A stretch of DNA of 41,104 nucleotides, taken from NCBI GenBank assembly GCA_017476665.1, contig JAFUZJ010000046.1, positions 1 to 41,104 of the forward strand. The letters run 5' to 3'. Numbering within the stretch: position 1 is the first letter of the stretch; each line of letters opens with the position of its first letter. The stretch is from Lachnospiraceae bacterium. GTDB lineage: Bacteria > Bacillota > Clostridia > Lachnospirales > Lachnospiraceae. Position numbers and translations under genes: made by a program. Of the stretch, positions 1,982-15,747 are shown piece by piece. The notes under the pieces were generated by a model that worked only from the letters and a program-made list of their open reading frames with translations, made no database searches and had not been told where the DNA came from.

Positions 1982-2677
1982 CTACGCCTGCACTTCTCTT
2001 TTTACTTCCCTTTTTACTTTTCTTATATCCAGCCGCCTCGCCAGTACGCCAATGCCCATTCCCAATGCTGATATCATCATACCAATCCAAAAAAGCCTTG
2101 TCTTAGGTATCCGCATGATGAGATCCGTCCTTATACCGCCGGCAACCAGTTTTTCTCCATACACAAAAATATAATTCACTACCCAATACCACACTCCCCA
2201 GAACACCACCCATATCCACTTCCACATCCCCCAAAAATCGTGTTTCCCTATCATCCCCGAGATTACAAAAGTAGAAATAGGAAGCCACATCCAAAGCACC
2301 ACAAGCTGATACAACATGATATCCGTCGGTTCCAGCAAAACCCACTTCCAGATCAGCGCGATCATCCATACCCCCAGATAAGTTGTCGCCACCAGAATCC
2401 TTCCCAGCTTCTCCCTGCTCTTCACCATATCCGTGCTTTCTTCCAGATAATCCAGATACCTTCCATGCTCATCCATTGCCTCTTCCTCCTTCAACAGATG
2501 GTCTAGACTGATATGATACAGGTCGCTCATCTTCACAACACTCACTATATCGGGATATGTCTTTTCATTTTCCCAATTGGAAATGGTCTGCCTGCTCACT
2601 CCAAGCGCCTCCGCCGCCTGCTCTTGTGTGAGCTCCGCCTCCAATCTGGCACTCTTGATCTTGCTCCCTATATCCAT
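1982..2677 (-). CDS. XRE-family HTH regulator with C-terminal membrane domain
   Basis: Residues 1-65 form a classic Cro/C1-type helix-turn-helix (IKSARLEAELTQEQAAEALG, then VSRQTISNWENEKTYPDI). After a charged linker, residues 95-215 hold about four tryptophan-rich transmembrane segments (WMIALIWKW, VVLWMWLPIST, WKWIWVVFWGVWYWVV, LFWIGMMISALGMGIG) and a basic tail. DNA-binding heads tethered to membrane tails are common in Firmicutes and are thought to sense membrane state or interact with neighbouring membrane proteins. It lies directly upstream of the hypothetical gene and MATE transporter, which makes it their likely regulator (inference). The ATG at 2677 follows an AGGAGGCAGAT ribosome site. 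Confidence 0.85.
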   Translation of the reverse strand: MDIGSKIKSARLEAELTQEQAAEALGVSRQTISNWENEKTYPDIVSVVKMSDLYHISLDHLLKEEEAMDEHGRYLDYLEESTDMVKSREKLGRILVATTYLGVWMIALIWKWVLLEPTDIMLYQLVVLWMWLPISTFVISGMIGKHDFWGMWKWIWVVFWGVWYWVVNYIFVYGEKLVAGGIRTDLIMRIPKTRLFWIGMMISALGMGIGVLARRLDIRKVKREVKREVQA

Positions 2678-2764
2678 CTATCTGCCTCCTGATTTTTTGT
2701 GCCTATTGTAATCCGGAAGAAACACTCCGTCTATCAAATCCCTTTGACTTTTGGGATTTTCTCC

Positions 2765-2846
2765 TGTCAAAATGCTTTGACAACCACTGAAACCGCCCTT
2801 TTCAAGCAACAAAAATGCAATATAAATTAAAACCCTAACCTTCCAA
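2765..2846 (-). promoter_or_regulatory. Candidate promoter and inverted-repeat operator of the XRE regulator
   Basis: An inverted repeat TGTCAAA-ATGC-TTTGACA (2765-2782) lies about 90 bases upstream of the XRE start. Farther upstream, inside the 3' end of the helicase gene, TTGGAA (2841-2846) and TATATT (2819-2824) are spaced 16 bases apart and could be a promoter. An XRE protein autoregulating through the dyad is plausible but unproven. Nothing else is visible in this gap. Confidence 0.35.
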
Positions 2847-5063
2847 CCGCATCCCCGACCGGAACGCAATCGGAAACATAAACGCCTTCTCCACTCCTGA
2901 ATCAAAAACCACAGTAAACTTACTTGCCCTGCCAGCCGCATCATACTCCACATCATTCACCACGCCGGCACCATATTTTCTCTGAATCACGCGTTCTCCA
3001 ATAATCAGTTCGACATTTACACTGTCCTTCCCCGTATCCGCTTTCCCTGCATATATCTCATACGCTTTTCGTACCTCCCGTTTCCGCCTGGGTGTCTGAG
3101 CCATAGCCGCTCTGTCGCCCCTCCCTGTTTCCTGTGCATTTCGTCCCAACGCGGACCGTACCTCCCGCACAAAACAGGACTCTCGATCCGCCAGTTGAAA
3201 GAGGATCAGCTCGTCCTTAGCCCGCGTCATTCCCACATAAAACAGCCGTCTTTCCTCCTCAAACGCTTTCCTCTCCTGAGACGTCGCCGCAGTTTTCGGA
3301 CCGATCGCCTGAGCAGGGAACACCCCATCACAGACATCCAACAGATAAACCCGTTCATATTCGAGCCCTTTGGCCGAATGAATCGTGGACAGGATAAATT
3401 GACACTCCTCATCCTGCCGCCCCTCCTGCAACAGCAACCGCAGCTTCTGCAGCCGCTCCAGGAAACCGTTGACAGCCTCTTCCTGCTTCGCCAGCATCCG
3501 CAGGATAAACAGCTTGTTCCCGTCTATATGGTTCCGCTCCAGATACTCCCCATATCCCAACGGTGTTTCAATCCGGTACAACGCCTTTCCCGGTGTCTCA
3601 TCCAGCATATTCCGCAGATGTGTCTGGAACGCCTTACATTTTCCCCGCACCACATCGCTCACGTCCCGCAGCTCGTCTACCGCATCCAACACGGGTATGT
3701 TCTCCGTCTCACTGATCCGGCACAACTGCTCCGCCTGCGGCTTCTTCAGATACGTCTTACACTTAAAATAAATCCGGAGAAACAATTCCGTATCATAGGG
3801 ATCCTGCGCAAACCGCAGGATATTCGTGACATCCGTCACCACCCGATGGGTAAAAAATCCCATATCCATGCCCCGCATCCGATAGGAGATCCCCTGCCGG
3901 AGCAACAGATCGATCAGCGGCAGCGCGCTCTCATTGTCTCGATACAAGACCGCCGTCTCCCTGCTGCAATCCGCCGCAACCTTGCAAAGATACCCATATT
4001 GGTTCGCCCGCCCTTTCAGCTCCGTGACACGGACTTCCGCTTCCGTCTCCCTTACCGCCACCATGTGCTTCTCATGCCTGTCCTGATTGCGCCCGATAAA
4101 TCGGTCCGCCACGGCGACAATCCCCGCGCCTGATCTGTAATTTTGATCCATCACCAGTACCTGCGCGCCGGTATGCTCTCTTTCAAAGGCCAATAGCGCC
4201 TCCGGATAAGCCGCCCGAAACCCATAAATGCTCTGATCCTCATCCCCCACCATGAACAGGTTTCCGTTCTCTCCTGCGAGCAGCTTAATGATAATGTGCT
4301 GAATCTTGGATGTATCCTGTGCCTCGTCCACACAGATATATCGATACCGCTCCTGATAAAACCGCAACAGCTCCGGCACCTGTTTCAAAAGCCGATAGGC
4401 ATAGAGCATCTGATCGTCATAATCCATCAGCCCATGCTCCCGCAAATAAGCGTTATAAGCTCTGTAAACCTCCCACAGCGGGACACCCTCCTGCTCCCCC
4501 AACTTTTGGATCTCGGACTCGGACAAGAGCATATTCTTGCAATAGGTGATCAGCGTTTTCATCCCATTCACATCACTTTCTGTGGGATATTCCTCCATAT
4601 AACTCACCATGATATTTGTCAGAACCCTGCCCAGTTCCTTTTCCTCTGTCACCAGCTCAAACGCCTTCTTTCCAATCATCCCTGCGTAACGCTGTATGAC
4701 TTTCGCGCAGATTCCGTTAATCGTCCGAAATTCCAGTCTGCTTCCCAAGACAAGTTCTCTGCCAACATCCTTCTCACCAACGCCGTCCCCATCAACTCCA
4801 TTGCCAGACCTTCCGCCAAAAATCTCTCCGAACCGTCTCTCCATATCCCGCGTCGCCGCCACCGTATACGTGAGCGTCAGAATATTCTGCGGCGAAATTC
4901 CCTCGCAAAACAGCATATATCCGAGCCTTGTCACCAACACTGTGGTCTTCCCGCTCCCCGGTACCGCCAACAGCAAAACCGGTCCATGCACCGCACAGAC
5001 CGCCTGTAATTGCTTTTCATTCAATTGCTTTGCATACTTTGCCCAAAATTCACTTTTATTCAT
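2835..5063 (-). CDS. UvrD/PcrA-like superfamily 1 ATP-dependent DNA helicase
   Basis: All SF1A helicase motifs are readable: LNEKQLQAV at the N-terminus (Q motif region), Walker A AVPGSGKTT (about residues 33-41), motif II VDEAQD, motif III GDEDQSIYGFRAA, QNYRSG (motif IV), TIHSAKGLEYERV (motif V) and YVGMTRAKDEL (motif VI). The family unwinds DNA 3' to 5' in repair and recombination. The open frame reaches a TTG/ATG pair at 5120/5117, but those sit right against the T-run of a terminator. The ATG at 5063 (MNKSEFWAKY) has AGAAGG just upstream and gives the usual UvrD N-terminus, so it is preferred. The C-terminus (FTVVFDSGVEKAFMFPIAF) is a short beta tail like that of other PcrA proteins. At 742 residues it is of normal length. 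Confidence 0.9.
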   Translation of the reverse strand: MNKSEFWAKYAKQLNEKQLQAVCAVHGPVLLLAVPGSGKTTVLVTRLGYMLFCEGISPQNILTLTYTVAATRDMERRFGEIFGGRSGNGVDGDGVGEKDVGRELVLGSRLEFRTINGICAKVIQRYAGMIGKKAFELVTEEKELGRVLTNIMVSYMEEYPTESDVNGMKTLITYCKNMLLSESEIQKLGEQEGVPLWEVYRAYNAYLREHGLMDYDDQMLYAYRLLKQVPELLRFYQERYRYICVDEAQDTSKIQHIIIKLLAGENGNLFMVGDEDQSIYGFRAAYPEALLAFEREHTGAQVLVMDQNYRSGAGIVAVADRFIGRNQDRHEKHMVAVRETEAEVRVTELKGRANQYGYLCKVAADCSRETAVLYRDNESALPLIDLLLRQGISYRMRGMDMGFFTHRVVTDVTNILRFAQDPYDTELFLRIYFKCKTYLKKPQAEQLCRISETENIPVLDAVDELRDVSDVVRGKCKAFQTHLRNMLDETPGKALYRIETPLGYGEYLERNHIDGNKLFILRMLAKQEEAVNGFLERLQKLRLLLQEGRQDEECQFILSTIHSAKGLEYERVYLLDVCDGVFPAQAIGPKTAATSQERKAFEEERRLFYVGMTRAKDELILFQLADRESCFVREVRSALGRNAQETGRGDRAAMAQTPRRKREVRKAYEIYAGKADTGKDSVNVELIIGERVIQRKYGAGVVNDVEYDAAGRASKFTVVFDSGVEKAFMFPIAFRSGMRLEG

Positions 5064-13266: not shown

Positions 13267-13755
13267 CTAATCATCCAAACACTTTACCATAATATACTCT
13301 TCTTCATTTTCCTCTACAATCTCAAACCCTGTCTTCACATACAATTTCACCGCATAATTTGCCTTTTGAACCGAAAGGGAAACCTTTTTATATCCATCCT
13401 CTTTCAGTAGCAAAAGTATTTGCCGCATCAGCTCCGTGCCTATGCCACACCCGCGATACTCCCGATACAGGGAGATTGCCAGCGACGGCGTTTGGGCATC
13501 CACATGTCCATAATCATTCATAATGCGCGTCCAGACAGCCCCAACTACCTTTCCGCCCATCTCTGCCACCAGACATCTGTCATCCTTGTACTGCCCAAAG
13601 TTCTCCACATAGACCTGCAATTCCGGCTTTTTTATAATACTCCTATCCGGCGGACTCACTCCCTCCGGAATAAAAATAGCCTCATACAAAAAATCATCCA
13701 GCAGACCATATTCTGTTTCTTTTATTTCCCGTATCACAAGACCATCTTCTCTCAT
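13267..13755 (-). CDS. GNAT-family N-acetyltransferase
   Basis: The acetyl-CoA-binding motif A is readable as SLYREYRGCGIGTELMRQIL (Q/RxxGxG pattern), followed by motif B with SLSVQKANYAVKLYVKTGFEIVEE. This is a standard 162-residue GNAT fold. The acceptor (amine metabolite, ribosomal protein or antibiotic) cannot be inferred. Its start overlaps the stop of the GH25-PARG fusion by four bases (ATGA), so translation is coupled. An antisense open frame through it is ignored. Confidence 0.9.
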   Translation of the reverse strand: MREDGLVIREIKETEYGLLDDFLYEAIFIPEGVSPPDRSIIKKPELQVYVENFGQYKDDRCLVAEMGGKVVGAVWTRIMNDYGHVDAQTPSLAISLYREYRGCGIGTELMRQILLLLKEDGYKKVSLSVQKANYAVKLYVKTGFEIVEENEEEYIMVKCLDD

Positions 13756-15281
13756 GAAAACCTCTCCCGAAACGCCGTAATATTCTTTCCATCCACACTG
13801 CCGTAAATCGCAAAGCAGACCTCGTCAAAGCACCGCCCATACGCTTCCTCTACCAGCACTTGATAAAAATACCCCGACACATCCTGCGGCTTATTGCCGA
13901 AGGCACCGCACCCCCATGCGCCAAGCACTAGATTGCGATATCCTTTCTTCGCCGCAATCCGCAGCATGATACGAATCCTGCGCACCATAGTCTCCTCAAT
14001 CAATTTCCCGGAAGCCAACAATGCCGCGCCGTATCGATTTGGCGCCGGAACGGTAATCACAGCCGCATGAAACGGTTTCTCCAGCAGCTCATATTTTTCA
14101 TTGCGAAACACACATACAGAGGGGGAAAGTAACATATAATCCGACTCCACGGAACGAAGATGCGTATTGTTATAAACATACATCTCAGACGCCGCCTTGG
14201 AAGTGATCGACGCATACAAAGTGCTGCATCTGCAAAGCGCCTCCTCCTGCGCATTAGCTCCCAGCAGAAAACCGCCGCCCGGACCGTGCGCATTGGCAAA
14301 GTTCATCACAAAAGGATTTTCCAATCTCCGCGCCGCCTGAAAGGAATCCTTATTCACCACACTGATCCTGCACATCTGCTCCCCAAATGATTCAGCGATG
14401 TTCCATGAAAGCAATTCCTCACCGGCTATCGGTGAAAACACCTCCACAGCCTGAAAATCCATCTCCGGCAAATGGATGGTCTTCCCGTTGATCTCAAATT
14501 TCTTTTCTGCCGTGATTTTCATGGTCTCTTTTGCAATCTGAATATTGTTCATCTTCAACTCCTCAAACTCCTCTGCGCTCCCATAGAACACATCCATATC
14601 AATATATCGTTCCTCTCCCGCATACCCGTCCAGCACAACCCGATCCGCATACTGCCAAAGCGTCCAGTCCTCTCCCGGCTCAAAGTACACATTCCGCAGC
14701 CAAAGCGGATACTCATCAAAATCCCCCTGTATGTACTTTCTGTAAAACGGATAGGTGGTATAGATCATTGGTTTTACACCATACTTCGTCTCCAGAATAT
14801 CCAGCATCTTTTGCAGAGATGTTCGCACAGCACTCTCCCCTGGCGGATTCTGCCTCTTATCCCCATAATACTCAATATCCACGGCAGGAATCAGTGTACT
14901 TTCCGAGCCAACTGTCTCTATGTACCATTCCGCCTGGGTTTCTGCCGGACTGTCAAAACTGAAAAAGTGATAGGCTCCCGGCACAACTCCTGCCTGCCCT
15001 GCCCCAATCACATTCTGCTCGAAATACGCATCTGCATAGGAACTCCCTTCTGTAGCCTTAATATACGCGAAAGAAATACCTTGTTCCCGTATTGTGTTCC
15101 AGTCAATCTCACCCTGATAGTGAGAGACATCAACGCCGCAAATTTCATATTTTCCGGCTTGCACCCTGGTGGGGATCTGCTGCCAAATCATGACACCCAA
15201 ACTTCCCATCACCAATATCGCCATTGCGCAGGCAATGAACCCGGCAACTTTTCTCCGCCCAGCCTTACCGTTCATGCACAT
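13752..15281 (-). CDS. Membrane-anchored GH25 lysozyme fused to a microbial-type poly(ADP-ribose) glycohydrolase domain
   Basis: One continuous 509-residue frame holds two unrelated enzymes. Residues 12-33 are a hydrophobic signal anchor. Residues 45-240 are a GH25 lysozyme (GVDVSHYQGEIDW, FAYIKATEGSSY, PGAYHFFSF, catalytic-type VDIEY with Asp135 and Glu137, YIDMDVF). Residues 244-509 are a bacterial PARG of the TIGR02452/DUF2263 type, starting NNIQIAKETMKI and carrying the signature GPGGGFLLGANAQEEALCR (GGG 335-337, QEE 345-347). GH25 enzymes cut peptidoglycan outside the cell. PARG removes ADP-ribose, normally in the cytoplasm. Joining them in one exported chain is contradictory unless the PARG part is also made separately. 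An ATG at 14552, with GAGGAG six bases upstream, sits exactly at the junction. The start overlaps the NimA-like gene by 17 bases; the stop is ATGA-coupled to the GNAT gene. Confidence 0.9.
   Translation of the reverse strand: MCMNGKAGRRKVAGFIACAMAILVMGSLGVMIWQQIPTRVQAGKYEICGVDVSHYQGEIDWNTIREQGISFAYIKATEGSSYADAYFEQNVIGAGQAGVVPGAYHFFSFDSPAETQAEWYIETVGSESTLIPAVDIEYYGDKRQNPPGESAVRTSLQKMLDILETKYGVKPMIYTTYPFYRKYIQGDFDEYPLWLRNVYFEPGEDWTLWQYADRVVLDGYAGEERYIDMDVFYGSAEEFEELKMNNIQIAKETMKITAEKKFEINGKTIHLPEMDFQAVEVFSPIAGEELLSWNIAESFGEQMCRISVVNKDSFQAARRLENPFVMNFANAHGPGGGFLLGANAQEEALCRCSTLYASITSKAASEMYVYNNTHLRSVESDYMLLSPSVCVFRNEKYELLEKPFHAAVITVPAPNRYGAALLASGKLIEETMVRRIRIMLRIAAKKGYRNLVLGAWGCGAFGNKPQDVSGYFYQVLVEEAYGRCFDEVCFAIYGSVDGKNITAFRERFS
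14550..14576 (-). promoter_or_regulatory. Internal ribosome binding site and start codon at the GH25/PARG junction
   Basis: On the minus strand GAGGAG occurs twice just before an in-frame ATG at 14552, the nearer copy at six-base spacing. From there the frame encodes a complete 266-residue PARG beginning MNNIQIAKET, where free-standing homologues begin. A separate cytosolic PARG could therefore be translated from the same message. Confidence 0.55.
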
Positions 15282-15747
15282 ATTTCCCTGTCATATGGTC
15301 AATGCTGATACCCACCATCTGCACCCGCTTCACCGCATTTCCCAGCTCCTTCGTCACTTCTTCCTCCGTGGGAAAATACTTCCGCCCCAACTCTCTTGCC
15401 TTCTCGTAAGTGATGGTCTCATCTGTCACAAGCTCCGCCCGACCCATGATCACTACGCTGGTCACATAATAAGACCAGTCACCGTCCTTCTGCTCTCCCT
15501 GATTCCACACGGTAAAGCACACCTTGTCACAGTTTTTGATAGCATCCAATTTATGTCCTTCCTTGGCGCAGTGAAAATACACCTTCTCCTCCGCCTCGTC
15601 AAAATAAAAATTCAAGGGAATCGCATAAGGGTATCCGCCGTCGCCGATCATCGCCAACACACCGCGTTTCTCTTCTCTCAAAATCTTGAAACATTCCTCT
15701 TTGCTGATCTCCTGTTTTGCCCTGCGCATCTTACGAAATTCCATCAT
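15265..15747 (-). CDS. NimA-like/pyridoxamine 5'-phosphate oxidase-fold flavoprotein
   Basis: The 160-residue protein starts MRRAKQEISKEECFKIL after a short leader and continues with GVLAMIGDGGYPYAIPLNFYF and YFHCAKEGHKLDAIKNCDKV, the pattern of the FMN-binding split-barrel family that includes 5-nitroimidazole reductase (NimA). Members reduce nitro-compounds or bind flavin; it may therefore contribute to drug or redox stress tolerance. A strong GAGGAGAACAA precedes tandem ATGs. It is the first gene of an operon with the GH25-PARG fusion, GNAT and hypothetical genes. Confidence 0.85.
   Translation of the reverse strand: MMEFRKMRRAKQEISKEECFKILREEKRGVLAMIGDGGYPYAIPLNFYFDEAEEKVYFHCAKEGHKLDAIKNCDKVCFTVWNQGEQKDGDWSYYVTSVVIMGRAELVTDETITYEKARELGRKYFPTEEEVTKELGNAVKRVQMVGISIDHMTGKYVHER

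What the first reader, a model, noticed from the sequence alone, without database searches (positions are those of the whole stretch)
13752..15281. A GH25 lysozyme fused in one frame to a bacterial PARG
Residues 45-240 are a GH25 muramidase with catalytic-type VDIEY, and residues 244-509 are a complete microbial PARG with GGG...QEE. An N-terminal signal anchor would carry the ADP-ribose-removing domain outside the cell, where no such role is known to me. Either the PARG has an extracellular target (for example ADP-ribosylated envelope proteins or foreign toxin products), or the fusion is a recent accident. I do not know a described GH25-PARG protein.
Basis: partly seen in the sequence, partly recalled or inferred. 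Interest (0 to 1): 0.8.

Follow-up and report, generated by a model that had tools for sequence, protein, structure and literature searches.

The report
Deletion-fused lysozyme and PARG genes
In this gut-type bacterium a small deletion appears to have joined two neighbouring genes, a cell-wall lysozyme and an ADP-ribose-removing enzyme, into one reading frame; the nearest sequenced relative still carries them as two overlapping genes, so this is probably a private accident rather than a new kind of exported enzyme.

Summary
In detail: window 13752-15281 (-) is one 509-aa open frame with a GH25 lysozyme (residues 50-219) and a microbial PARG (248-505). The fusion was found in no other genome searched. 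A sister species (Lachnospiraceae bacterium UBA3821, 90% identical DNA) has the same order, PNPOx-GH25-PARG, but as two separate genes, GH25 of 253 aa and PARG of 266 aa, in different frames and overlapping by 4 nt. The window lacks exactly 29 bases there, flanked in the relative by a 5-base direct repeat; the loss removes the GH25 stop and brings PARG into frame. A more distant relative (G055) has PNPOx followed directly by PARG, without GH25. PARG's native start (M244) survives behind a strong Shine-Dalgarno-like sequence, so cytosolic PARG can probably still be made. No other spanning match appeared in genus (138 genomes), order (392) or GTDB-wide scans. An exported PARG with a function is not excluded, but nothing supports it. 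An assembly error cannot be ruled out, because no second strain could be examined.

The parts
13752..15281 (-). fused ORF, 509 aa, GH25 plus microbial PARG
14553..15281 (-). GH25 part, residues 1-243, with N-terminal hydrophobic anchor; orthologue of the separate 253-aa GH25 gene of UBA3821
   Evidence: Pfam; alignment to L053; hydropathy
13752..14552 (-). PARG part, residues 244-509, starting at the conserved native ATG of stand-alone PARGs
   Evidence: Pfam and NCBIfam; M244 nearly invariant in 15 aligned proteins
14552..14553 (-). point where 29 bases present in UBA3821 are missing; fusion junction
   Evidence: DNA alignment; checks
14553..14572 (-). stretch with a Shine-Dalgarno-like GAGGAG in front of the internal PARG ATG, duplex energy -8.1 kcal/mol
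15265..15747 (-). upstream PNPOx-type protein gene; overlaps the fusion start by 17 nt
   Evidence: Pfam; coordinates
13267..13755 (-). downstream GNAT acetyltransferase gene; overlaps the PARG stop by 4 nt
   Evidence: Pfam; coordinates, sequence

Best explanation
The locus was a tight run PNPOx-GH25-PARG with a 4-nt ATGA overlap between GH25 and PARG, as it still is in UBA3821. In the window lineage a 29-bp deletion between two copies of a 5-base direct repeat removed the last ten codons and the stop of GH25 and put PARG in frame. Shown: the open frame, the 29-base difference, the repeat, the two-gene state in the sister species, and no other fusion in what was searched. Inferred: the direction of change and the protein products. 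Ribosomes that start at GH25 should make a 509-aa membrane-anchored or secreted protein whose PARG half is carried outside as a passenger. Ribosomes that start at M244, behind the retained GAGGAG sequence, should make normal cytosolic PARG that removes ADP-ribose inside the cell.
For: UBA3821 has separate ORFs 2407-3168 and 3165-3965 on L053. The alignment is 90% over 2063 columns; its only gap inside the coding part is the 29 bases at the junction (the other 3 gap columns lie before the PNPOx start). The segment occurs once in L053 and not in the window. G055 has stand-alone PARG after PNPOx with no GH25 between. Of 179 loci held, both domains lie in one open frame only in L001 and L176, both the window itself. 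M244 is the native start. The internal ATG has duplex energy -8.1; 10 of 249 internal in-frame ATGs and 8 of 29 ORF starts that I picked in the window reach it; UBA3821 PARG has -6.9 and G055 -6.8. dN/dS (NG86) against UBA3821 is 0.095 for GH25 and 0.126 for PARG. The AlphaFold2 model has two folded halves with a low-confidence stretch at 245-253 and pTM 0.55.
Against: No second genome of the window's species was available, so an assembly error is possible. The direction (deletion here or insertion in UBA3821) rests on parsimony; G055 lacks GH25 and cannot polarise the 29 bases. Internal initiation is a prediction from a simple duplex energy with a generic 16S tail; the 29 comparison starts are mechanical ORF starts, some TTG, and may be wrong. 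The pairwise dN/dS may mostly reflect time before the fusion. On the window branch PARG has 5 nonsynonymous and 13 synonymous polarised codon changes against 3 and 16 on the UBA3821 branch, with 20 unpolarised: slightly more amino-acid change on the window side, too few to show relaxation or constraint.
Confidence: 0.8

Rival explanations
1. Assembly or sequencing artefact: the genome really carries the two-gene arrangement of UBA3821 and 29 bases were lost in assembly.
For: The genome is a 72-contig draft and no second strain was available. The fusion is in this one assembly only.
Against: The difference is a clean 29-base loss between copies of a 5-base repeat, too short to confuse a short-read assembler (general knowledge, not tested). 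No second copy of the region was found in the genome.
Confidence: 0.1
2. Functional bifunctional exported enzyme: the GH25 anchor carries PARG outside, where it removes ADP-ribose from envelope proteins or from foreign toxin products.
For: The frame is intact, both motifs are kept, and the N-terminal anchor is present. A bacterial PARG is reported to protect E. coli that makes an ADP-ribosylating RNA toxin (PMC11833690, passages), though there both proteins are inside the cell.
Against: No homologue spans both domains in one frame. The PARG follows GH25 with no added linker, and the model has a low-confidence stretch there. The PARG half has 7 cysteines against 1 in residues 44-243, which fits a cytosolic protein better (inference). 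Partners of eight long PARGs scanned are ADP_ribosyl_GH, Macro, GDSL, DUF1653 or none.
Confidence: 0.07
3. The fusion is ancestral and UBA3821 split it by a 29-base insertion that supplied a stop and a new start region.
For: Two genomes alone cannot polarise the event.
Against: In the relatives examined GH25 and PARG are never joined to each other, and G055 has a separate PARG in the same place. An insertion would have had to bring both a stop and an ATGA overlap.
Confidence: 0.03

Closest known systems
Microbial-type PARG (PF10021, TIGR02452; PDB 3sig)
   Same: Full domain with GGGx7QEE, native start at M244, PDB PARG match E 8.8e-38.
   Different: Relatives examined have it alone or, in long proteins, with ADP_ribosyl_GH, Macro, GDSL or DUF1653; here it follows GH25 in one frame.
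GH25 lysozyme (PF01183; PDB 2wag)
   Same: Full domain, N-terminal hydrophobic anchor, D51, D135 and E137 invariant.
   Different: In ten relatives of 246-276 aa the match to the window ends at residues 239-244 and the protein stops soon after. Two related GH25s are in proteins of 561 and 568 aa, one with an esterase domain, neither with PARG.
UBA3821 locus L053 (DFDT01000117.1)
   Same: Same gene order PNPOx-GH25-PARG, 90% identical DNA.
   Different: GH25 and PARG are separate genes with a 4-nt overlap; the 29 bases are present.

Membership tests
GH25 lysozyme (PF01183) | full-length Pfam match over the gathering score | tested here: met
   152.4 bits against cut-off 27, profile 1-179 of 180
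GH25 lysozyme (PF01183) | conserved acidic residues (D near the N-terminus and the DxE motif; catalytic role recalled, not from a call) | tested here: met
   D51, D135, E137 invariant in 26 rows
GH25 lysozyme (PF01183) | muramidase activity | not testable with these tools
   needs purified protein
Microbial PARG (PF10021 / TIGR02452) | full-length profile match over cut-off | tested here: met
   107.1 bits against 23.5; 191 bits against 50
Microbial PARG (PF10021 / TIGR02452) | GGGx6-8QEE motif (from PMC7050489, passages) | tested here: met
   GGG 335-337, QEE 345-347, invariant in 15 rows
Microbial PARG (PF10021 / TIGR02452) | ADP-ribose hydrolase activity | not testable with these tools
   needs purified protein
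Conserved GH25-PARG fusion family | homologues in other species that carry both domains in one frame across residues 235-255 | tested here: not met
   none but the window's own copy in 138 genus genomes, 392 order genomes, or 179 loci; these counts include the window's own genome or copies

The most novel reading that the evidence does not exclude
One reading frame gives two products: an exported GH25-PARG that acts on ADP-ribosylated molecules at the cell surface, and a cytosolic PARG from the internal start at M244, so that the deletion gave the species a first extracellular ADP-ribose hydrolase of this kind.
Probability: 0.07. Interest if true: 0.7.

Novelty: new member of a known kind. Interest (0 to 1): 0.3.

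Why it matters
It is a clean example of how an overlapping gene pair can become one frame through a single short deletion, with the unfused sister species at hand. It also warns that a striking domain combination seen in one genome need not be a conserved protein. If the exported PARG worked outside the cell it would be a new place of action for bacterial ADP-ribose hydrolases.

Tried and rejected
A conserved GH25-PARG family was sought and not found. All genome counts include the window's own genome. Calls: 99 relatives (weaker matches not listed there), 138 genus genomes, 80 loci kept of 135 relatives in GTDB species genomes (near copies of the window's genome may be left out by the tool), 392 order genomes (at most three first-look candidates scored per genome), PF10021 in 397 family genomes (55 with a match) and in 398 phylum genomes (13 with a match). 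In one search L053 is listed as residues 1-508, but that joins two segments in two frames. A few GH25 alignments stray past residue 243 (L091 6-267, L099 20-309; G489 9-259, G199 29-261). L091, L099 and the G489 place (L172) show no PARG by profile, and L172 is GH25 with an esterase; the G199 place, which holds a stop, was not fetched. In the other direction G011 matches 226-508 with two stops inside, and its PARG ORF starts on its own.

In one search, nine places had open frames over 400 aa; one is the window's own. The other eight were fetched (with five places), and none of the 13 loci has both domains. Pfam was run on seven of those eight (L163 was left out), on one further long PARG (L169) and on two long GH25 proteins. 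The 13 PARG loci were tested with profiles; only the window's own has GH25.

A viral origin: the viral-contig scan returned four GH25 relatives of 26-40% identity and no PARG match.

Literature, open-licence library only: PARG with GH25 and fusion, 0 papers; ADP-ribose glycohydrolase, macrodomain, muramidase and fused, 0 papers; a narrow six-term search for secreted bacterial ADP-ribosylhydrolases gave one paper, on ENPP1, seen in the listing only; fusion by deletion between short repeats, 0 papers. One search listed 18 papers on bacterial PARG; of these I read passages of PMC11833690 and PMC7050489. One search listed 6; I read the abstract and outline of PMC10666635.

GH25 gained by the window and UBA3821 or lost by G055: undecided. 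GC of the GH25 part (0.492) does not stand out from PNPOx (0.484) or PARG (0.496). No fold search was run.

Full report
The ORF at window 13752-15281 on the minus strand is real as sequence: ATG to TGA, 509 codons, no internal stop. Pfam finds GH25 at residues 50-219 (E 2.1e-44) and PARG_cat_microb at 250-394 (E 1.4e-30), and NCBIfam TIGR02452 covers 248-505. The best-scoring solved sequences are the GH25 lysozyme 2wag and the PARG 3sig.

The neighbourhood is a tight run of genes on one strand. The end of a PNPOx-type protein gene (15265-15747) overlaps the fusion's start by 17 nt, and a GNAT gene (13267-13755) begins inside the last 4 nt of PARG. So the GH25 start codon lies within the end of the PNPOx gene.

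The DNA is 90% identical over 2063 columns. There GH25 is a gene of 253 aa (L053 2407-3168) and PARG a gene of 266 aa (3165-3965), in different frames with a 4-nt overlap. The window lacks exactly 29 bases of this junction. The lost stretch begins with the same five bases that follow it, so the loss lies between direct repeats. It takes away the last ten codons and the stop of GH25 and brings the PARG ATG into frame. The stretch occurs once in L053 and nowhere in the window. Deletion between short repeats is an ordinary event; that is general knowledge, and one search found no paper for this use of it.

A second relative, G055 (L006, part of L054, a MAG from roe deer rumen), has PNPOx (90.6% identical protein) directly followed by a stand-alone PARG (84.3%) with no GH25 between them. 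Homology to the window stops one base after the PNPOx stop and resumes one base before the PARG ATG. So GH25 was either inserted between these genes in the common ancestor of the window and UBA3821, or lost in G055; this was not decided. Overlaps of 4 nt or 1 nt are by far the commonest distances between neighbouring genes of one direction and go with coupled translation (abstract of PMC10666635).

No other genome searched shows the fusion (all counts include the window's own genome). The window's copy is the only match that spans residues 1-509 in 99 relatives, in 138 genus genomes (52 of 138 have a match at E 1e-20 or better) and in 392 order genomes (86 of 392 at E 1e-15 or better). Of 179 loci held, some of them duplicates, both domains lie in one open frame only in L001 and L176, which are both the window, and in one locus only there and in UBA3821 (L035, L053, L177). 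A few alignments stray past the junction without a second domain; they are listed under Tried and rejected. Among 397 genomes of the family, 55 have a PARG. Eight of its matches outside the window lie in open frames over 400 aa, and none has GH25. Eight long PARGs were scanned with Pfam, seven of these eight and one from the genus: ADP_ribosyl_GH in four, with a Macro domain in one of these, GDSL in one, DUF1653 in one, no other domain in two. In the phylum sample 13 of 398 genomes have a PARG, and only the window's has GH25 in its frame.

What is made from the fused frame is inferred. The PARG ATG at residue 244 is the native start, nearly invariant in 15 aligned proteins. In front of it the window has a GAGGAG sequence with a duplex energy of -8.1 kcal/mol to a generic 16S tail, reached by 10 of 249 internal in-frame ATGs and 8 of 29 ORF starts picked from the window; the separate PARG genes of UBA3821 and G055 have -6.9 and -6.8, and the fusion's own start -4.0. 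So PARG can probably still be started on its own. The ribosomes that start at GH25 no longer stop and should carry PARG out with the anchored lysozyme. The AlphaFold2 model of the whole protein (mean pLDDT 83.0, pTM 0.55, 38 sequences) shows both halves folded with a low-confidence stretch at 245-253; the PARG active-site loop 330-348 is also of low confidence, so the model says nothing about activity.

Selection was looked at by codon comparison. dN/dS against UBA3821 is 0.095 for GH25, 0.126 for PARG and 0.057 for PNPOx. Polarised with G055, PARG has 5 nonsynonymous and 13 synonymous changed codons on the window branch and 3 and 16 on the UBA3821 branch, with 20 unpolarised. PNPOx has 2 and 10 against 3 and 11, with 8 unpolarised. 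PARG is not obviously decaying, but the numbers are too small to date the fusion or to show constraint after it.

What bacterial PARGs do is largely open: PMC11833690 calls their physiological roles unknown, and reports that the Streptomyces PARG SCO0909 protects E. coli that makes an ADP-ribosylating RNA toxin (passages). The window's own genome has two DarT-type matches, one beside an ORF that looks like a macrodomain DarG (that label is my reading and was not scanned), so intracellular ADP-ribosylation is plausible here. I found no paper on a GH25-PARG protein and none on a secreted bacterial PARG in one narrow search, within the open-licence library only.

Verdict: a true open-frame fusion, most likely a lineage-private deletion product with cytosolic PARG retained through its own start. 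I put an assembly error at about one in ten, since no second strain could be read. A functional exported PARG is possible but unsupported.

Noticed in passing
L053 3986-3987 against window 13267-13755: In UBA3821 the GNAT gene after PARG is cut: DNA homology jumps from its first bases to its last part (residues 134-162), so 374 nt are missing there.
   Followed up: partly
L174 392-2172 (G000 contig C21): A DarT-type ORF beside an ORF that reads like a macrodomain DarG (my reading); a second DarT-type match is in L175.
   Followed up: partly
L169 28-2691: An 888-aa protein with PARG_cat_microb, ADP_ribosyl_GH and Macro domains in one chain.
   Followed up: no
L023 1297-3540 and L164 147-1880: PARG in long proteins: L164 has a PARG with a GDSL lipase-like domain by Pfam; the L023 ORF runs on past PARG and was not scanned.
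   Followed up: partly
window 15265-15281: The GH25 start codon lies inside the end of the PNPOx gene, an overlap of 17 nt also seen in UBA3821.
   Followed up: partly
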